A stretch of DNA of 46,411 bases from a virus (IMGVR_UViG_3300012920_000070:1-46411); one strand, 5' to 3'; shown: positions 623 through 43,461, counted from the stretch's first letter. The notes: generated from the sequence alone by a model not told the origin. Program-made: numbers and translations.

Positions 623-1039
623 ATGGGAGTTATCGAACCGACTAAAAAAAAGATAAAAGTAGTTGATAAAAGAAAAGATGAAAAACCAGAGGCTAAAGAA
701 GATACAGCAAGCCAACTTCCAGAACCTCAAGGATATAGAATTTTAATTGCTTTACCAGAACCAGAAGATAGAACTAAAGGAGGCATTTATAAAACTGAAA
801 CTGAAATACACACGGAAGAGATTGCGACAGTAGTTGGTTTTGTTTTAAAAATGGGTGAAGATTGCTATGATGACAAGAAGAAATTCCCATCAGGAGCATG
901 GTGCAAAGAAGGAGACTGGATTGTTTTCCGTGCTTTTACAGGCACACGCTTAAAAATACACGGCAAAGAATTTAGAATTATTAATGACGACAATGTAGAA
1001 GCTGTCGTTCAAGACCCAAGAGGCATAGAAAGAGTATGA
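623..1039 (+). CDS. GroES-like co-chaperonin
   Basis: The product has 138 residues. After a charged, low-complexity extension of about 36 residues comes a Cpn10-type core: GYRILIALPEPEDRTKGGIY, a mobile-loop-like segment TETEIHTEE, then IATVVGFVLKMGEDCY, KEGDWIVFRAF and KEFRIINDDNVEAVV. This is the GroES order: a beta strand carrying the invariant RI-, the GGI loop that docks on GroEL, then the VGD-like barrel strand. Such a protein would cap host GroEL during folding of phage proteins, probably the capsid protein, which would fit its place two genes before the decoration and capsid genes. The 3' end overlaps the scaffold start by 4 bases (ATGA). The loop is divergent, so partner choice may differ from the host GroES. 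Family call fairly sure; use with capsid inferred. Confidence 0.8.
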   Translation: MGVIEPTKKKIKVVDKRKDEKPEAKEDTASQLPEPQGYRILIALPEPEDRTKGGIYKTETEIHTEEIATVVGFVLKMGEDCYDDKKKFPSGAWCKEGDWIVFRAFTGTRLKIHGKEFRIINDDNVEAVVQDPRGIERV

Positions 1040-2638: not shown

Positions 2639-3229
2639 ATGGCTACAAAAGCAACCCCAATGGGTGCAGAGCCAGTAGGTACTACTTCAGCAAGTGGCTC
2701 ATTTAGTGGAAAAACAAGACATATTCCAATTAAATCAGCAGAAGGCACAAGCATCTTTTATGGTGATTTTGTGAAACTTGTTGTAGCAGGAGGAGTTGTA
2801 ACAGTGGCAAAAGACACTGGTACTACAACACTTACACCTGTAGGCATCTTTTTAGGATGTAGATATACTGATCCTAATACTAAACAACTTACTTTTGCTC
2901 AATCCTACAACACATCTATTGCAGCTGATGACATTGAAGCTATCGTTTTAGACGATCCAAATGTTGAGTTCAGAATGCAAGCAGATGGAGCTGTAGCAAA
3001 AGGCAAAATCGGCAGTAACATAGCTGTGGTGCAAACCGCAGGTTCAACAGACATCGGAAGAAGTAAAAACGCTCTCGATGCCTCTACTGCTGCAACCACT
3101 AACACTTTACCAATTCGTATACTTGGATTCGTAGAAAGCGGAGAAAGCACACCAGGAGATGCATTTACTGATCTTATTGTGAAATTCAACGCAGGAATGC
3201 ACGCATACGATAAGGCATTAGGCACATAG
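2639..3229 (+). CDS. Head decoration protein candidate
   Basis: A 196-residue, beta-rich, Gly/Thr/Ala-rich protein without long helices, hydrophobic segments or Cys pairs. It carries strand-like blocks such as GDFVKLVVAGGVVTVAKD, TPVGIFLGCRYTDPNTKQLT and ILGFVESGESTPGDAFTDLIVKF. A small beta-rich protein immediately before the major capsid gene is the usual place for a head-stabilising or decoration protein. GGAG at 2629-2632 supports the start and the gap to the capsid gene is only 11 bases. Alternative: a minor capsid or head-fibre protein. The structural assignment rests on position and composition. Confidence 0.6.
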   Translation: MATKATPMGAEPVGTTSASGSFSGKTRHIPIKSAEGTSIFYGDFVKLVVAGGVVTVAKDTGTTTLTPVGIFLGCRYTDPNTKQLTFAQSYNTSIAADDIEAIVLDDPNVEFRMQADGAVAKGKIGSNIAVVQTAGSTDIGRSKNALDASTAATTNTLPIRILGFVESGESTPGDAFTDLIVKFNAGMHAYDKALGT

Positions 3230-3240
3230 GAGAATAAGAT

Positions 3241-4179
3241 ATGGCAATTTCAAGAGCCCAGATGCTCAAAGAGCTACTTCCAGGTCTAAACGCTTTGTTT
3301 GGTTTGGAATATGAAGGATACGATTCAGAACACGCAGAAATTTATGAAACTGAAAATTCTGATCGTTCATTTGAAGAAGAAGTGAAACTTTCTGGTTTTG
3401 GTCAAGCACCTGTAAAAAATGAAGGAGCAGCAATGACTTATGATTCTGCTCAAGAATCTTTTACTGCTAGATATAACCACGAAACTATTGCTTTAGGTTT
3501 TGCGATTACTGAAGAAGCAATGGAAGATAATCTTTACGATAGTCTTTCAAGCAGATACACGAAAGCATTAGCTAGAGCTATGGCTTATACTAAACAAGTA
3601 AAAGCTGCATTTCCTCTAAATAATGGTTTTACTAACACTTTTCAGTCAGGAGATGGCGTAAATTTATTTACTGCTGTTGGTGATGGCGTAGCAGGAGGGG
3701 GTGGTCACCCTCTAGTAGATGGTGGATTCAATAGTAATCGACCAGTTACAGCAGCAGACCTTAATGAAACTTCATTAGAAGCTGCTATCATAGATATTTC
3801 TGGTTATACTGATGAGCGTGGATTATTAGTTGCAGGTCGTGCAAGAAAACTTATTGTACCATCTAATCTAATGTTCGTTGCTCAAAGAATACTAGCAACT
3901 GATCTAAGACCTAACACTGCTGACAATGATATTAATGCTATTAAGTCATTAGGAGTAGTACCTCAAGGTTACTCAGTTAATCACTATTTAACTGATACAA
4001 ACGCTTGGTTCTTACTTACTGATATACCTAATGGTATGAAACATTTTGTTAGAACACCGTTAGAAACTGGTATGGATGGAGATTTCGACACAGGTAATGT
4101 TCGTTATCGTGCTAGAGAAAGATACAGCTTTGGTGTATCAGACCCTCTAGGAATCTACGGAAGCCCAGGTTCTTCATAG
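3241..4179 (+). CDS. Major capsid protein
   Basis: A 312-residue protein starting MAISRAQMLKELLPGLNALFG, followed by an E-rich segment (about 28-50), a long helix-like segment ITEEAMEDNLYDSLSSRYTKALARAMAYTKQVKAAF (about 95-130), and a C-terminal half with LIVPSNLMFVAQRIL and WFLLTDIPNGMKHFVRTPLETG. The pattern of N-arm, E-loop, spine helix and P-domain, and wording close to the gpT-like/HK97-fold capsid proteins of marine phages, make this the shell subunit. It lies after scaffold and decoration genes, has an AGGAG site, and is followed by the strongest terminator in the window, which would end a high-level head transcript. No protease cleavage site was identified. Confidence 0.88.
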   Translation: MAISRAQMLKELLPGLNALFGLEYEGYDSEHAEIYETENSDRSFEEEVKLSGFGQAPVKNEGAAMTYDSAQESFTARYNHETIALGFAITEEAMEDNLYDSLSSRYTKALARAMAYTKQVKAAFPLNNGFTNTFQSGDGVNLFTAVGDGVAGGGGHPLVDGGFNSNRPVTAADLNETSLEAAIIDISGYTDERGLLVAGRARKLIVPSNLMFVAQRILATDLRPNTADNDINAIKSLGVVPQGYSVNHYLTDTNAWFLLTDIPNGMKHFVRTPLETGMDGDFDTGNVRYRARERYSFGVSDPLGIYGSPGSS

Positions 4180-19448: not shown

Positions 19449-22400
19449 TGAATTATAATAGACCTTATAAGAATATGGCAGACCAAGTTGCAGGAAGAGG
19501 AAGGTATGGCGACACAACTTTAATGCATGTTAATCCTGCTGAAGTTCAAGCTCTTTCTAATGTAGCACCATTAACTGTAAATCCAGATACAGGTTATCCA
19601 GAAGCATTTTTACCTTTTTTAGCACCTATACTAGGTAGTTTAGGTGGTACAGCTTTAGCAACAAGTGGAGCTTTCGGAGCTTTATCTCCTTTAGCAACTT
19701 CAGGTATCGCTGCTCTAGGTTCTGGACTTGCAACAACAGCTGCAACAGGAAGTCTTGAAGAAGGCATGCTTGCTGGTCTTACTGGTTTTGCTGGTGGACA
19801 AATACTTCAAGAAGCAGCTAATGCTGGAAATTTAGCTAAAGCAGGTGCTGCAAGTGGGGTTAATCCTGATCAACTTGCTAATATAGGTACTGAGTTTGTT
19901 CCAGCAGTAACTGATCCTGTTGGTGCTATGGGTCCTGTTCAATTATCTGACGCATCAATGAAACTTACAGGTACAGGTGTTGCAAGTTTAAATCCAGTGC
20001 AAGCTGCAACTTTAACAGACGCTGTAAATAAACCAGGAATTGCAGGTGCGTTTACTAATGCAGGAATAAAAGGAGCTGGAAGTGCTTTAATGAATCCAGC
20101 AAACTTAGCTCCTGTAGCGATTGGTATGGGTGGAATTGCTGTAGAAGAAGATTATAAAGACTATGTAGAAAGCCTAGAAAATGCAGAACAAGCAAGAAAA
20201 GATAAAAGAGAAGCTGATAGAGCATCTTATGTAGAACAAATACCAGGCAGAGTAAATTTACAATATGCTAGTGGAAACAATAATCCTACTAGTTTGGGTG
20301 GTTCTGGTTTAGGTGGTCCTTATGCTAACAGATACGCTGCATCTGGTGGTTCTGTTCAAAGATTTGCAAATGGCGGCCCAACTCTTAATTATTTAGCAGG
20401 AGTTGGTTATACATACGATCCAAATACTGGAATTTGGACTGGACCAAACGGAGTAACTATTCCAGACCCAGGATTTATTCCAGGTAATCCACCAAGTGAA
20501 GATGGAACTCCAGAAGAACAAGGTTATCAATACGAAGGAACTCCGGGTCAATTTAGACCTCCTTCAGATATAGGAGCTACACCACCTCGTGGTTATAACG
20601 CTTTACCAGAAGGATTTATGCCAGGATTTGATCCTGAATTTCAATATTTAACAAACCTTACTCCAAGTGCTACAGATATAAGAGGAAATCCAGCTTATAG
20701 TGGTGTATCAGGTGGTGTTTACAATACACCTTTTGGTGACATACCAGCAAATATACCAAACCCAAATGCTACTGCAGCTGATCCAAATGCAAGAGATTTA
20801 TCAGTAGACCCTTATGCTTACGGTTCAGATTGGAATGAATTTTTAATGGGTAATGAATCTATAGGAAGAGAGTCTTATTTAGATGAATATAGGGCTTCTA
20901 ATCCTTATTATCAATATGCTGATATGTCTTTTGACAATATATTTGGTGGAGGTGGTTATGGAACTCCTGATTTCAGGGGTTATCCTATGAATCAACCTTA
21001 TCCAGGACCTTATATGCCAAGACCTGACGGTGATTTTTATCCTACTCAAACCAATCCTTATGAAGAACAAATAGCTTCACTTAATGCAAGAATAGAAGAG
21101 CTTATGGCTAGGATAGAGGGAACTTCTGACTCAGAACAAAAAACAGAAGAAAAGAAAGAAGAAAAGAAAGACACATCTCCAAACTGGACTATTATTGAAC
21201 AGTATAGAAATAACGACAATGCTCTTGTATCAGTATTAAAAGATATGAACCCTAACTCACCTACTTATAATGAAACTAAAACAGATGTAGATCAAACTGG
21301 TGTAGATAAAAATGCTAATTACAAACAGCAAAGCACTAAACAATTACCTGACGGAAGAACAGAAGTTACGCTTATTGATTCAAATCCATATTCGCCTACT
21401 TATGGTGATACTACGGTACAATATACAGGCACAATAACACATAAACAAGATGCAGATGGTAATTGGGTGTTAATAGGTTCAGACAGCGATTCAGGTGGTG
21501 ATTCAAATAGTGATCCAGATGGTGGCTCAGATAGTGATCCAGATGGTGGTTCAGATAGTAATCCAGATGGAGGAGCTGGAGACGATACAACCCCAGGAGG
21601 AGGTGGAGATGATACTATTACTTCTGGTACTGGTAATGACATTATAACTGATGGTGCTGGTAATGACATTATAAATGATGGAGCAGGAAACGATATTATC
21701 AATGACGGAGCTGGAAATGATATTATTAACGGTGGTGCTGGAAACGATACTATTACTACTCTTGAAGATTTAGGTTTAACACCAGGAACAACTATTGGAG
21801 CAGGAACTCCATTTTCATTTACTATTCCAGAAGACTTTACTCTTCCAGCAAATACTACTCTTCCAGCAAATACTGGTGCAACAAACAATACTGTAACAAG
21901 CAATACAAACAACAACACAACTTCTGTAAATACTGGTCAATACATTCCTCCTATAAACACTGGTTTTGATTATAGTGGTGTGTATAATCCTTACAACATG
22001 AACTATTTAGCAGGTTTTAATATGCCAGGAGGAGGTTTTGCAGAGGGTGGCCCTGTTCCTCAATATCAGGATGGAGGACCATCATTAGCTGTATTAGAAG
22101 ATTATGCTCAAGATTTACCTATGCAACCACCAGTACAACAACCAATGTCTAATCCTAAAGTAGAACAATTAGTATCTTCTTTTGAGGATGTTGCAGAACA
22201 AAGAGGGCAACCTTTATCAGAAGGCGATAGAGATTTATTAAGAAAAACTTCTCTTGTTATTCTTGGTGAAATACAAGATGACGGAAGTATAGTTTCTGAA
22301 TTTGTTTCTTTATTTGGTCCTGAACAATTAGACAATTTAAAAAAATATTTAAGTCCTCCTGAAGCACAAACAAAAGGAATTATAGAAGGAGAAGGAGGAG

Positions 22401-39201: not shown

Positions 39202-39218
39202 TTAAATGTAAATTTACA
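39202..39218. repeat. TGTAAATTTACA palindrome, copy 1
   Basis: A 17-bp direct repeat unit TTAAATGTAAATTTACA, of which TGTAAATTTACA is a perfect palindrome. The other copy is exactly 50 bp away. It lies just after the cytosine methyltransferase stop, in the convergent gap. A related 13-mer, GGTTAAATGTAAA, lies inverted at 46129-46141. Probably a DNA-binding site. Confidence 0.65.
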
Positions 39219-39251: not shown

Positions 39252-39268
39252 TTAAATGTAAATTTACA
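39252..39268. repeat. TGTAAATTTACA palindrome, copy 2
   Basis: Second copy of the 17-bp unit; here the palindrome extends by one base on each side to ATGTAAATTTACAT. The spacing of 50 bp to copy 1 is near five helical turns, so two bound dimers would lie on the same face of DNA. The rest of 39171-39287 is plain AT-rich sequence with no gene. Confidence 0.65.
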
Positions 39269-39556: not shown

Positions 39557-39667
39557 AGTTTCCTCCTTTAAAAAAAAGAAACTACCCAGTAGTTAAGTAG
39601 TAAATAAAAATAATAATTAGAAGATTGACTTTACACTTTTTTTCAGCATAAAAATTTAGCTAAATAT

Positions 39668-39727
39668 GGCATAAAAAAGGCAGTAGATCGAAATGAAGTT
39701 CATAGGCATTGATGCCCTTTTTATGCC
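39668..39727. other. Large inverted repeat with 30-base loop, structured noncoding region
   Basis: GGCATAAAAAAGGCA at 39668-39682 pairs with TGCCCTTTTTATGCC at 39713-39727 in 14 of 15 positions, enclosing 30 bases that themselves hold GGCA-TTGA-TGCC. Located between two minus-strand small genes in a roughly 240-bp stretch without coding signs (39557-39795). Candidate structured RNA, a terminator for one strand, or a replication/recombination site. Confidence 0.5.
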
Positions 39728-39730
39728 AAA

Positions 39731-39762
39731 CAAGTTAACTTATTGGGGAAAAAATTAACTTG
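39731..39762. other. Second inverted repeat directly beside the first
   Basis: CAAGTTAA (39731-39738) and TTAACTTG (39755-39762) form an 8-bp perfect stem with a 16-base loop that is rich in G and A (TATTGGGGAAAAAA core). It starts only 3 bases after the preceding large hairpin, so the two could be part of one folded element. Read from the minus strand the pair follows the 48-residue gene. Confidence 0.4.
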
Positions 39763-39795
39763 CGTTCTCTAGTTCTGATGTTCATGTGGATTGAC

Positions 39796-39942
39796 TTATA
39801 ACTCGTTGTCTAGTAGCTGCACGCACTCTTGTATTTTTTCTTTTTTATCTCTTTGTTTGTTTGTTTCACTTGAAATAAAAATAAAACCTAAAAGAATCAA
39901 TCCTGCTACATATAATTGTAATTTTTCTTGCCAATTTAACAT
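39796..39942 (-). CDS. Small single-helix membrane protein, 48 residues
   Basis: On the minus strand, AAAGGGAG stands 7 bases before the ATG at 39942. The product is MLNWQEKLQLYVAGLILLGF then IFISSETNKQRDKKEKIQEC and VQLLDNEL: one membrane helix (about 9-25) followed by a charged tail with one Cys. A plus-strand reading of the same DNA has no ribosome-binding site. Directly upstream lies palindrome copy 2, the same arrangement as before the cytosine methyltransferase. Such small membrane proteins are typical of early phage accessory genes (exclusion, inhibition) but no function can be assigned. Confidence 0.6.
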   Translation of the reverse strand: MLNWQEKLQLYVAGLILLGFIFISSETNKQRDKKEKIQECVQLLDNEL

Positions 39943-40033: not shown

Positions 40034-40852
40034 TTACTCAATGTCCTCCAAGTTAATAGGTGGTTTAATTAAATTAGTATTATTAAGTTTAGTTAAAGCA
40101 TATGGTTCAGGTGGTGTTTTATTAAATTCATATTTAAACCAAACATAATGCAGATGACTTAAAAATAATTTTACTGTCCAACGCTTTGATATTGCATGAA
40201 TATGAGCTGGAGGTAGCTCTCCTTTTTTATAATGACTATAAGCTATAGTATTTTTTTGATAATTTTTTTCTTCTAATTGTTTTTTTGCATGGTCTTTATA
40301 ACTTCCAGCATTATTTTTCTTTGTTTCAATTTGTTTTCTTTTAGAGTACAGCTTTCCATAAAAAGCATCTTCATGATTACAAACCTTTACAAAACTTTCC
40401 CCTATTTTCCAAGCAAGAGTTCTTAATTGACCATTCCAAGGTCTTTTTTCTCCCTTGTTCCATTTTTGATTAGGGTTAAGACCAGCAAAATTCCATATAT
40501 GACCAGCAGTAGGTGCTTTGTGTATATCTATATGTGACAACAGACCAGCAGTTATAACGCCACCAACCCCATAATTTGACATACACCATCTTCCAACTTT
40601 GTGAGATTGAGAATATTTAGTTAAGAACTTTTTTATTTCATATTCTAAAGTTTTATCTTGTTCTAATAAATAATTTAAAGCACTGCACTGTTCTTTAGAG
40701 CTAATGGCCTCCCTTAGTTGGTTGGCACTTCTTTTTCTATTTTCTTGTATTTGATAATATCTATCAACCAAAACTCTTATTTCTGTTTGGTTTAATTCTT
40801 TTGCTGTTTGAAGAATATCTCTTTCCATTCTTCTGACTGGTGTCATTTCCAT
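40034..40852 (-). CDS. Stand-alone IS110-type (Transposase_20-like) domain protein
   Basis: A 272-residue protein, start supported by AAAGGGAG. The N-terminus is helical/coiled coil (about 10-85). Residues 94-105 (YGVGGVITAGLL) form a HhH-like motif, then SHIDIHKAPTAGHIWNFAGL and NPNQKWNKGEKRPWNGQLRT, LAWKIGESFVKVCNHEDAFY and LPPAHIHAISKRWTVKLFLS. The core follows the C-terminal half of IS110/IS116 transposases (GIG...A..L..EI......A.....AGL.P.......G......LR). It lacks the N-terminal RuvC-like DEDD catalytic part, and where IS110 enzymes show the SG with the catalytic Ser it has NKG. So it is probably not a transposase; such proteins recur in phages with unknown role, here in a recombination operon. 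Confidence 0.7.
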   Translation of the reverse strand: MEMTPVRRMERDILQTAKELNQTEIRVLVDRYYQIQENRKRSANQLREAISSKEQCSALNYLLEQDKTLEYEIKKFLTKYSQSHKVGRWCMSNYGVGGVITAGLLSHIDIHKAPTAGHIWNFAGLNPNQKWNKGEKRPWNGQLRTLAWKIGESFVKVCNHEDAFYGKLYSKRKQIETKKNNAGSYKDHAKKQLEEKNYQKNTIAYSHYKKGELPPAHIHAISKRWTVKLFLSHLHYVWFKYEFNKTPPEPYALTKLNNTNLIKPPINLEDIE

Positions 40853-40906
40853 TTCTCTCTCCCTTTAGAAACGCTCATTATTATTGATGTTTATAACTCT
40901 TTGGCT

Positions 40907-40972
40907 TTAAATAATTTTTGATAGACAAATAAGAATTGTAAATAGTGACACTATATCTAATAATTTTTCCAT
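40907..40972 (-). CDS. Possible 21-residue membrane peptide
   Basis: On the minus strand GAAGAG precedes an ATG giving MEKLLDIVSLFTILICLSKI and a final I, mainly hydrophobic. Very short and with a modest ribosome-binding site; kept because it belongs to a chain of similar tiny peptides between the SSB-like and IS110-like genes. The remaining sequence of 40853-41058 is AT-rich and includes a small CTTCGT/ACGAAG stem at 40980-41002. It could be noncoding. Confidence 0.3.
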   Translation of the reverse strand: MEKLLDIVSLFTILICLSKII

Positions 40973-41058
40973 TTTTTCTCTTCGTGAAGCTACTGTACGA
41001 AGATTTATATAAACTTAATAAATTATTTTTCAAATCAATAATCATCATAATCACTATT

Positions 41059-41139
41059 TTAATTTAAAATACTAGCCGTTGCCTCTAATGATATGTAGGT
41101 TACATAAAAACCTAATAACAAAAGAACAAAGACTAGCAT
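41059..41139 (-). CDS. Possible 26-residue membrane peptide
   Basis: On the minus strand AGGGAG precedes an ATG at 41139 with product MLVFVLLLLGFYVTYISLEA then TASILN: one hydrophobic helix and a short end. Right downstream of the SSB-like gene (26 bases). A good ribosome-binding site and the operon position support translation. Function unknown. Confidence 0.45.
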   Translation of the reverse strand: MLVFVLLLLGFYVTYISLEATASILN

Positions 41140-41165
41140 TAATTTCTCCCTAAAATCAAACATGA

Positions 41166-41510
41166 CTAAAACGGAATCTCATCGTCAATGAGAGCTTCTT
41201 CTTTTTTTGGTGGAGATTGCTCTGGATAATCTGTAGCTGGACTCGATATTCCTGGTGGTGCTACCTCAACACTAATATAAAAATATTTTATTCCTTCTTG
41301 ACCATCTTTAGGTTTAGATTTTCTATCCCACATTGCAATTTTAATTTCAGCTTGTTCTAAATTATTAGACTTAGCTAAATCAATCATTGCCTTGATTTGT
41401 TTTTTATTTATTTCTACTTGACCAACAAAATCTGGTTTTTTTGGTGTATCTTTGTATTTGTTTGGGAAAGCCGCACCTTCGGACTTTAGTTCTATATCAT
41501 AATTAGCCAT
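41166..41510 (-). CDS. SSB-like protein with acidic Phe-ending tail
   Basis: A 114-residue protein. The body (MANYDIELKSEGAAFPNKYK, VGQVEINKKQIKAMIDLAKS, AEIKIAMWDRKSKPKDGQEG, YFYISVEVAPPG) is a small beta/alpha domain, and it ends with a Pro/Ser/Glu-rich linker and the tail EEALIDDEIPF. The DD-I-PF end is that of single-stranded DNA-binding proteins, which recruit partner enzymes by this tail. The OB-fold itself is not obvious, so it may be an SSB-tail protein of another fold. It overlaps the RecT-like gene by 8 bases and fits an exonuclease/annealase/SSB set. Confidence 0.65.
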   Translation of the reverse strand: MANYDIELKSEGAAFPNKYKDTPKKPDFVGQVEINKKQIKAMIDLAKSNNLEQAEIKIAMWDRKSKPKDGQEGIKYFYISVEVAPPGISSPATDYPEQSPPKKEEALIDDEIPF

Positions 41511-42414
41511 TGTTTATTTCTCCTTTTCTAGCTTTTAAATTTGATAACATTTTTTTATAAGTTTCTTCGTCTACATCTTGCATTCGTTGAAATTGTTCTT
41601 TGTTGTTTTTAAATATGTCATTTAACTCTTCAACAGTTTTACAAGTTTCTGCCCAGACCTTTACTAAATCAGAAAATGCTTCAGCTTGTTCTTTAGTCGT
41701 AATGTCTGTATCTTTTACAGAAACTTCTGGATTATGAATAGCACCTTCAGAATTACTATTTAAAAGTTCTGTAACCTCCTCAACCTCTTTAACCTCTGCA
41801 TCATTACTAAAATGTGTATCGGTTTGTTTACTTTCTGTAATTACTTCTACTTCTACAGTATTTTTTGATTCTTCTTCTGGAAAATCTTCGGCTTCTTCTT
41901 TCGTAATTAAACCTTTTAAAGAATCAGGAAAGGCATCTCTAAGAGCAAAACCTCTGGCTCTCATTTGCAACATTCTATCTGGGTAACTTTTCCAAGGCCC
42001 TCTGTTAGTAAGACCAGCTCTTGTAGCATCTGACCAAGCAAATTCTCTTATAGTTTTTTCTATTTCATTAGTAGCCTTAACTAATCTTTTTACTGTGCAA
42101 ACAGCTTTTCTTTCATTTCCAGACCCAACAATTTGCTCTTCAATACCAGCAAAATCTGGGTTTACTCTGCATAAAGCAATAGCACTATCTCCGTATAAAG
42201 ATGGTTTTCCATTTATCACGGCAATATTTTGTAAAGCCTGGATTGGTTTTAAACCAACCTCATGACCCATTTGTATACATATTAATATGTCTGCTGGCTT
42301 TCCTTTGTAATTTACTGGAACAAAATCACTTTTAGATACTAATTCCGAAAATTCTTTTGCCTCGTTAAAGTTTGATGGTGTCATACCATCCATTTTTTGT
42401 AATTCATTAGTCAT
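41503..42414 (-). CDS. RecT-like single-strand annealing protein
   Basis: A 303-residue protein with the RecT/Bet-type core: DILICIQMGHEVGLKPIQAL, QNIAVINGKPSLYGDSAIAL, CRVNPDFAGIEEQIVGSGNE, IREFAWSDATRAGLTNRGPW, and SYPDRMLQMRARGFALRDAF. Residues after about 180 are acidic and probably disordered, then a helical end (AFSDLVKVWAETCKTVEELN). These proteins coat single strands and anneal complementary DNA in concert with a 5'-3' exonuclease, here the next gene upstream. Overlaps the nuclease gene by 8 bases. Good match in order and position; assignment is moderately strong. Confidence 0.75.
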   Translation of the reverse strand: MTNELQKMDGMTPSNFNEAKEFSELVSKSDFVPVNYKGKPADILICIQMGHEVGLKPIQALQNIAVINGKPSLYGDSAIALCRVNPDFAGIEEQIVGSGNERKAVCTVKRLVKATNEIEKTIREFAWSDATRAGLTNRGPWKSYPDRMLQMRARGFALRDAFPDSLKGLITKEEAEDFPEEESKNTVEVEVITESKQTDTHFSNDAEVKEVEEVTELLNSNSEGAIHNPEVSVKDTDITTKEQAEAFSDLVKVWAETCKTVEELNDIFKNNKEQFQRMQDVDEETYKKMLSNLKARKGEINNG

Positions 42415-43165
42415 TTACTCTCTCCTTATATTGTTCACAAAAACTATTTACATTACACCATTGCTCACACCTCGTAGCTATTCCTTTTGGAGATAGCCAT
42501 ACTTCCTCATCTGAACAAACAAATTTTTGAGGGTCTTTTACAGCTTCTTCGTGTAATTTAATTCTTTCTACTATAAAATTTTGTATTTCATCTTCACTCC
42601 AGTTTTCAATAGGTTTAATCATAACTGGTGAAGGTGGATAAGTATTACTGTTAGTTGCTCTCCCTTTGCTCCAGTCTTTTAATATAGCAATAATTCTAGC
42701 ATCTGGTATAGGGGTATCTTTATATAATTTTGAATACATCCATCTATATATATTAAGTTGATGTGTCCAATCTGGTTTATCGTAATTTACTGCATAAGCA
42801 TTAGTTGTTTTGTAGTCGCTTAAAATATTATCAGTAATACTATAATGATCGACTGTTCCAGAGATTAAAAAAGATTTTCCGTCAATTTTTAAAGAAACTT
42901 CCATTCTTTCTTCTGTTTTACAATCATCATGTATTTTATTTGCATTTTCTATTACTTGATGAACAGCAGTACCAATAAAAGTAGCAATAGAATCAGAATA
43001 ATCTTCAGTTATTTCATTTTTATGAAGCATTTTTAATGCTCTAACTTTCGGTGGTTGTAACAATTCTGTTACAGAATAATCTGCGTCACCTTTTGTATGA
43101 TTCCATGTGCCTTTGATACCTCTAATTACATCTAAAGGTATCATTTTATTGTTAGTGTGTTCCAC
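42407..43165 (-). CDS. RecB/Cas4-type exonuclease
   Basis: A 252-residue protein of the PD-(D/E)xK class. GTAVH (65-69) with E73 and then SGTVDHYS (D106), SDYKT (D117, K119) and HQL (135-137) are the family's motif order (H...D...DxK...Q). Near the end is C233-X3-C237-X5-C243, reminiscent of the iron-sulfur Cys group in Cas4/AddB-type nucleases. It starts with GTG overlapping the previous stop (TAGTG), with GGAG 9-10 bases upstream. It probably resects 5' ends for the annealase encoded next. Its cut polarity is inferred. Confidence 0.78.
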   Translation of the reverse strand: MEHTNNKMIPLDVIRGIKGTWNHTKGDADYSVTELLQPPKVRALKMLHKNEITEDYSDSIATFIGTAVHQVIENANKIHDDCKTEERMEVSLKIDGKSFLISGTVDHYSITDNILSDYKTTNAYAVNYDKPDWTHQLNIYRWMYSKLYKDTPIPDARIIAILKDWSKGRATNSNTYPPSPVMIKPIENWSEDEIQNFIVERIKLHEEAVKDPQKFVCSDEEVWLSPKGIATRCEQWCNVNSFCEQYKERVND

Positions 43166-43461
43166 TATTTAGTTCTCCATATAACTATGCCATTCGAATC
43201 AGTAGTAACAGAAAAACTAATGTTTTTATGACCTTGTTTTTGTCTCCATCTCCATATGTGACTTCTTATAGCTTGTATCATTGCATTTGCGTCTTCACGA
43301 CTCATTTCTAACTTCATGCAGTCGTAAACAAACTCACCAGAACTGTCTTTTATAGGATAGTGTAGCTCTTCCAATGGTAAAGACCATCTTTGTTTTTTTC
43401 CTCTACCTAAAGATTCTTTTGGTTTTTGCTGCCTATCAATTTTTATGTTAATATCACTCAT
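43165..43461 (-). CDS. Small conserved protein leading the recombination operon
   Basis: A 98-residue basic protein: DRQQKPKESLGRGKKQRWSL, PLEELHYPIKDSSG, EFVYDCMKLEMSREDANAMI, QAIRSHIWRWRQKQGHKNIS and FSVTTDSNGIVIWRTK. It looks like a small beta/alpha domain with a basic patch and an aromatic-rich helix IRSHIWRWRQK, possibly for nucleic acid binding. First gene of the minus-strand operon; its stop overlaps the next start. No known family recognised. Confidence 0.6.
   Translation of the reverse strand: MSDINIKIDRQQKPKESLGRGKKQRWSLPLEELHYPIKDSSGEFVYDCMKLEMSREDANAMIQAIRSHIWRWRQKQGHKNISFSVTTDSNGIVIWRTK

What the first reader, a model, noticed from the sequence alone, without database searches (positions are those of the whole stretch)
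40034..43461. IS110-like domain protein without its RuvC half, in an exonuclease/annealase/SSB operon
The 272-residue protein keeps the C-terminal IS110 core (YGVGGVITAGLL, AGLNP, WNGQLRTLAW) but has a coiled coil in place of the DEDD nuclease, and NKG where the active Ser-Gly is expected. It lies downstream of a RecB/Cas4-like nuclease, a RecT-like annealase and an SSB-like protein on the same strand. IS110 enzymes use a bridge RNA; the nearby untranslated hairpin regions (39.67-39.76 and 39.99-40.02 kb) raise the question whether an RNA partner was kept. A domesticated recombination or strand-pairing factor is possible.
Basis: partly seen in the sequence, partly recalled or inferred. Interest (0 to 1): 0.78.

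Follow-up and report, generated by a model that had tools for sequence, protein, structure and literature searches.

The report
Phage RNA-guided DNA-binding protein, few guides
A marine virus of bacteria carries a nuclease-free protein of the recently described TIGR-Tas family, which uses short guide RNAs to find DNA; here almost the whole guide array has been lost, leaving two guides, one of them inside a hairpin and nearly unchanged in a distant relative, so the system probably still works and has a fixed target.

Summary
The 272-aa protein (40034-40852, minus) is intact, lacks the DEDD/RuvC half and the IS110 serine, and lies downstream of exonuclease, RecT and SSB-like genes. It is not a decayed IS110 enzyme but a TasA, the nuclease-free effector of TIGR-Tas. 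Its family profile matches TasH (E 1e-74) and TasR (4e-42) far better than IS621 (4e-6), and the AlphaFold model matches TasH/TasR best. Of 64 related loci, 59 have a 32-38-nt-period array within 3 kb, against 7 of 68 controls. The closest phages have 34-nt dual-repeat arrays. The window lacks one, but two units remain downstream on the tas strand. Guides in this clade are inherited and conserved (17 matches, 0.02 expected). RecT linkage is clade-level synteny. Likely function: guide-directed, non-cutting DNA binding. One relative's conserved guide exactly matches a conserved codon stretch in a peptidase gene of T4-like marine phages: a candidate natural target, not proven.

The parts
40034..40852 (-). 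tasA: 272-aa solo-Nop-domain Tas protein without nuclease domain
   Evidence: dN 0.19 / dS 1.25 against L006
39761..39794 (-). Guide unit U1: box-C-like TCA (39794-39792), spacer A ATCCACAT (39791-39784), loop repeat GAACATCA (39783-39776), spacer B GAACTAGA (39775-39768), degenerate edge GAACGCA
   Evidence: with U2, the only two matches to [TC]CA-N8-[GA]AAC[AT]TCA in the 46-kb window (0.23 expected)
39667..39728 (-). Guide unit U2 in a 16-bp stem: 5' arm 39728-39713, TCA 39712-39710, spacer A ATGCCTAT (39709-39702), loop GAACTTCA (39701-39694), spacer B TTTCGATC (39693-39686), 3' arm 39682-39667
   Evidence: spacers match L006 unit 2 (ATGCCGAT/TTTCGATC) at 15 of 16 bases
39730..39763 (-). 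12-bp hairpin between U1 and U2
40872..40906 (-). U0: conserved element upstream of tasA, AGYCAAAGAGTNNN[AG]AAC[AT]TCA-(3-5)-AATGADCG; holds the loop repeat but its second spacer is too short for a normal guide
   Evidence: present in 5 of 5 clade phages examined
39796..39942 (-). 48-aa small membrane-like ORF directly before U1; a homologue precedes the array in L006
39986..40019 (-). 11-bp hairpin just after the tasA stop, without guide motif; a similar hairpin is in L006
41166..41510 (-). SSB-like protein, upstream gene of the early operon
41503..42414 (-). RecT-type annealase
42407..43165 (-). PD-(D/E)XK exonuclease

Best explanation
The protein is a TasA of a TIGR-Tas system in a ~60-kb marine podovirus-like phage. 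Shown here by homology and structure prediction: a solo Nop domain with coiled coil, no HNH or RuvC. Inferred from the family: two copies bind one tigRNA through its box-C/D-like motifs, the two 8-nt spacers pair with opposite strands of a ~16-bp DNA target, and the DNA is unwound and bent but not cut. Binding would block transcription or replication of the target, most plausibly in a rival phage or other mobile element in the same host. In this lineage the ancestral 34-nt dual-repeat array has shrunk to two units, one enclosed by a 16-bp stem, so that it resembles the stem-loop guides of other TasA loci. The retained guide (spacers AUGCCUAU / UUUCGAUC) appears to be under selection and is the likely functional guide. 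The RecT/exonuclease/SSB genes are operon neighbours, not shown to be partners.
For: Protein: profile against PDB gives TasH 1.1e-74, TaTasR 3.7e-42, IS621 3.6e-6; Foldseek of the model (pLDDT 91) gives TasH 5e-8, TasR 2e-6, IS621 1e-2; full-length alignment with Salicola phage CGphi29 SpTasH, whose 36-nt array was recovered as a positive control. Family: 59/64 tas loci have a 32-38-nt-period array within 3 kb against 7/68 control loci. Clade: dual-repeat arrays in L006, L007, L009, L022 and two arrays in the L008 phage. Window: exactly two loop-plus-spacer motifs in 46 kb, both on the tas strand just downstream (0.23 expected in the window; 0 of 2000 shuffles gave two in that intergenic region). 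U2 spacers are 15/16 identical to L006 while four-fold sites in tas are 48% identical. TasA is under purifying selection, dN/dS about 0.15. Spacer pairs are shared between clade phages 17 times against 0.02 expected.
Against: No canonical array of 5 or more units in the window, so the guides may be relics; U1's second edge repeat is degenerate. No target of the window's own guides was found: 37 exact viral hits for U2 fell in scattered genes. Expression, processing and binding cannot be tested here. The effect on the target is unknown even for the characterised TasA proteins (PMC12045711).
Confidence: 0.72

Rival explanations
1. TasA is kept for a guide-independent role (DNA bending or architectural help to replication/recombination), and the two guide units are relics of a lost array.
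For: The array is reduced in this lineage alone among the clade phages; U1's edge repeat is degenerate; tasA sits after exonuclease, RecT and SSB genes.
Against: U2 spacers are conserved well beyond neutral sites; U2 lies in a stable stem (z -5.5); every other close relative whose downstream region is held keeps an array.
Confidence: 0.15
2. The guides act on the phage's own DNA or RNA, for example as a timing switch of its own genes, with U0 upstream of tasA as an autoregulatory site.
For: U0 is conserved upstream of tas in 5 of 5 clade phages and contains the loop repeat; phage-encoded RNA-guided regulators derived from transposon proteins exist (TldR, abstract of PMC13418256).
Against: No guide of the clade has an exact match in the expected order in clade phage contigs; the excess at two or fewer mismatches is slight (57 against about 40; 2 of 40 shuffles reach it).
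Confidence: 0.1
3. A domesticated IS110 transposase fragment acting as a recombination or strand-pairing factor with RecT.
For: Shared IS110 C-terminal fold; operon with exonuclease, annealase and SSB genes.
Against: Profile and fold place it with TasH/TasR, not IS110; the gene is fixed in synteny and not mobile; neighbours tested at more distant relatives are not RecT-type genes; most relatives have TIGR arrays.
Confidence: 0.03

Closest known systems
TIGR-TasA with stem-loop array (Peromyscus gut contig; Faure et al. 2025, PMC12045711)
   Same: Solo Nop domain; [quoted passage not shown]
   Different: There 13 stem-loops in three subarrays; here one stem-enclosed unit plus one unit outside a stem, in a clade whose other members have dual-repeat arrays
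SpTasH of Salicola phage CGphi29 (PDB 21kl, 9w04 and others)
   Same: Homologous along the whole Nop domain (26% identity, tblastn E 3e-9); phage-borne; array follows the gene
   Different: TasH has an N-terminal HNH nuclease and a full 36-nt-period array; the window protein begins where HNH ends
TaTasR (PDB 9mty)
   Same: Nop domain and coiled coil, guide logic with two spacers
   Different: RuvC nuclease fused; cuts DNA; archaeal, 9-nt spacers
IS110 / IS621 recombinase with bridge RNA (PDB 8wt6)
   Same: Distantly related C-terminal fold, RNA-guided
   Different: DEDD domain and catalytic Ser absent here; not a mobile element; much weaker profile and structure match
phrog_4285 ('transposase', integration and excision)
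   Same: The window protein is a clear member by score (E 3e-44)
   Different: The annotation is misleading: the family corresponds to Tas proteins

Membership tests
TIGR-Tas (TasA) | Nop-domain protein that groups with TasH/TasR rather than IS110 | tested here: met
TIGR-Tas (TasA) | No HNH or RuvC nuclease domain (what makes it TasA) | tested here: met
   272 aa, all-helical model, N-terminus starts at the coiled coil
TIGR-Tas (TasA) | Adjacent TIGR array of several units | tested here: inconclusive
   Met in 59/64 relatives and in the closest clade; in the window only two units
TIGR-Tas (TasA) | Two short spacers flanked by paired box C/D-like motifs shared by loop and edge repeats | tested here: met
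   Clade: TGAAYCA edge and GAACATCA loop with 8-nt spacers; window units keep TCA, loop and 8-nt spacers
TIGR-Tas (TasA) | Array RNA processed into guides bound by Tas; RNA-guided DNA binding | not testable with these tools
   Needs small-RNA sequencing and binding assays
IS110 transposase | N-terminal DEDD RuvC-like nuclease | tested here: not met
IS110 transposase | Catalytic serine in the C-terminal domain | tested here: not met
   KG at the expected position in the window and most relatives; position judged by alignment, not by superposition on IS621
IS110 transposase | Mobile element (variable genomic positions, ends, bridge RNA) | tested here: not met
   Fixed syntenic position in five phages; element ends were not searched for separately
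RecT-system accessory factor | Consistent association with RecT-type recombination genes | tested here: not met
   Holds in the clade only; RecT replaced by Sak-like in L007, other genes beside distant relatives

The most novel reading that the evidence does not exclude
These phages use inherited, purifying-selected TasA guides as a fixed weapon against competing phages: guides pair with strongly conserved codon stretches of essential genes in rival T4-like phages, and follow synonymous variation there. The window lineage has reduced this arsenal to one or two guides, one in a hairpin, a natural step from dual-repeat array towards single stem-loop guides. Support: spacers shared between phages vary at positions that are third codon positions (T1, T2, T6, T7), and guide T2 (CCAACWGC/CAAAATAT, in three clade phages though not in the window) has exact 16-nt matches in one gene family, the phrog_459 'peptidase' of T4-like marine phages (motif PTAYFD), in 21 of 80 listed contigs and 11 lineages at 75% identity, the next largest cluster being 4 contigs.
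Probability: 0.35. Interest if true: 0.82.

Novelty: new variant of a known kind. Interest (0 to 1): 0.6.

Why it matters
TIGR-Tas was described in 2025 and its natural targets, its spacer origins and the role of nuclease-free TasA are stated as open (PMC12045711). This locus and its relatives give (1) a minimal natural TasA locus with two guides, one hairpin-enclosed, nested in a dual-repeat clade; (2) evidence that guides are inherited and conserved between diverged phages rather than rapidly renewed; (3) a concrete candidate target class that can be tested. It also shows that the PHROG label 'transposase' hides a widespread phage RNA-guided family.

Tried and rejected
1) Dual-repeat array in the window by tandem-repeat, direct-repeat and autocorrelation searches: none. 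2) Rfam: no match. 3) Targets of all 333 spacer pairs in the first loci: no excess over mispaired controls; in clade contigs a slight excess only. 4) Guide T1 scanned in both orders: scattered hits; in one order seven contigs (about three lineages) hit a phage exonuclease motif (AVHxI), judged too few and in the less likely order. 5) Window guide U2 scanned: 37 hits without a convincing common gene. 6) T5 scanned: 11 scattered hits. 7) Host identification through GroES: the gene is shared by the whole phage group, so uninformative; search of host genomes was not possible because the locus gives no genome handle. 8) Other clade guides in Pelagibacter phage HTVC008M and in the T4-like loci: no clear excess apart from T2 itself. 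9) A TasH ancestor for this TasA was considered because TPxxxMER at its N-terminus resembles the HNH end of SpTasH; the tree places TasH as a separate clade and does not decide.

Full report
What is there. The window is a 46.4-kb virus record; a 59-kb contig from another metagenome is 99.8% identical over the region. Pfam sees it only weakly (E 0.0074, below cut-off), PHROGs strongly (phrog_4285, E 3e-44). By tblastn in annotated phages it hits Salicola phage CGphi29 14539-15300 (E 3e-9) and Microcystis phage Mvi-JY20 (E 6e-13). The CGphi29 locus is the one from which SpTasH was characterised (Faure et al. 2025, PMC12045711), and repeat analysis of that locus here recovers its 36-nt dual-repeat array.

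Family. In the PDB the single sequence matches TasH (E 7e-11) and TaTasR (1e-9), with no IS110 enzyme listed at E up to 10. With a 29-sequence profile the values are TasH 1e-74, TasR 4e-42, IS621 4e-6. The AlphaFold model (pLDDT 91, pTM 0.87, all helices) matches TasH and TasR structures first, IS621 next with E about 0.01. There is no HNH or RuvC domain, so by the published definition it is TasA. The KG at the expected serine position is shared by most of the family. This is a relative of IS110 through the Nop domain, not a broken IS110.

Arrays in relatives. 64 tas loci of the family were compared with 68 loci fetched for unrelated reasons: 59 against 7 have a 32-38-nt-period repeat (score at least 0.60) within 3 kb of tas or in the matching control stretches. 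In the closest clade (window, L006, L007, L008, L009; support 100/100) the arrays have a 34-nt unit: edge [GA]A[AG]TGAA[TC]CA, 8-nt spacer A, loop [GA]AACATCA, 8-nt spacer B. The L008 phage has two arrays.

The window is the exception. No periodic array exists near tasA (0.49-0.50 in the same scan), and the 59-kb version has only the same two units. The motif [TC]CA-N8-[GA]AAC[AT]TCA occurs exactly twice in the 46-kb window, at 39794 and 39712, both on the tas strand directly downstream; 0.23 are expected in the window and none of 2000 shuffles of the intergenic region gave two. U2's spacers ATGCCTAT/TTTCGATC match unit 2 of L006 (ATGCCGAT/TTTCGATC) at 15 of 16 bases, although four-fold sites in tasA of the two phages are 48% identical. 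tasA has dN 0.19 and dS 1.25 between these phages. Protein and U2 therefore both look constrained. The stem-enclosed unit resembles the stem-loop arrays described for another TasA, but arises inside a dual-repeat clade.

Guides are inherited. Between clade phages with 54-72% Tas identity, 17 spacer-pair matches (13 or more of 16) were found against 0.02 in composition-preserving shuffles. Several pairs are identical between the L006 and L008 phages, in the same order in the array. This argues for long-lived targets. An alternative, exchange of array pieces by recombination, is not excluded.

Targets. The text of PMC12045711 (8-nt 3' overhangs) and the codon phase of spacer differences favour a target read as spacer B followed by the reverse complement of spacer A; this order was written down before the last scans. 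Differences between shared spacers fall on third codon positions in four pairs (T1 WTAYV, T2 PTAYF, T6 MPMIE, T7 GLLHS). The gene is phrog_459 'peptidase' (E 1e-150), typical of T4-like marine cyanophages and present in Pelagibacter phage HTVC008M. The window's U1 spacer A is the exact reverse complement of T5's spacer A, and U1, T5 and T10 can all be read as R[MI]WM, which suggests overlapping targets but may be chance.

Mechanism. Shown here: family membership, absence of nuclease, guide units, conservation. Inferred from characterised relatives: dimer plus one guide RNA, two spacers pairing with opposite strands, unwinding and bending without cleavage, hence interference by blocking. Not shown: expression, RNA binding, target, effect.

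Recombination link. Exonuclease, annealase and SSB genes precede tas in the clade, with RecT in the window and L006 and a Sak-like annealase in L007. Neighbours tested at distant tas loci are helicases, a minor head protein or unknown. The link is clade synteny.

Noticed in passing
window 40872-40906 (-); L006, L007, L008, L009 upstream of tas: Conserved 35-nt element just before tas with invariant CAAAGAGT, a loop repeat and AATGA.CG, but a 3-5-nt second spacer; possibly an autoregulatory TasA-binding site.
   Followed up: partly
window 39628-39660 (+), and the same place after the arrays of L006, L007, L009, L022: Conserved TTGAC[TA]TTACA(T/C)TTTTTTT at the 3' end of the array, reading like a promoter directed antisense through the array.
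   Followed up: no
L190 (tas at 3001-3972): Another tas locus without detectable periodic array within 3 kb (score 0.49).
   Followed up: no
L030 5968-6801 and L022 47-720: tas reading frame broken into pieces although arrays are present next to it.
   Followed up: no
L008 phage (G004) 49188-49342: Second TIGR array far from the tas gene in the same phage.
   Followed up: partly
L007 3433-4182: Sak-like annealase at the place where the window and L006 have RecT: non-homologous replacement within one operon.
   Followed up: partly
window 623-1039: Phage-encoded GroES co-chaperonin, shared with the HTVC023P/HTVC027P, MinM2 and DSL-LC04 phages; places the window near that phage group.
   Followed up: partly
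window 39202-39218 and 39252-39268: Two copies, 50 nt apart, of TTAAATGTAAATTTACA with the palindrome TGTAAATTTACA, after the cytosine methyltransferase gene; possible operator pair.
   Followed up: no
window 21476-21753: Tandem 24- and 27-nt in-frame repeats inside a 1057-aa ORF.
   Followed up: no
L192 12201-12686 (-): Exact match of guide T5 in a NinB/Orf-like gene (weak PHROG hit) at RMWMSD, the motif that guides U1, T5 and T10 could all read.
   Followed up: partly
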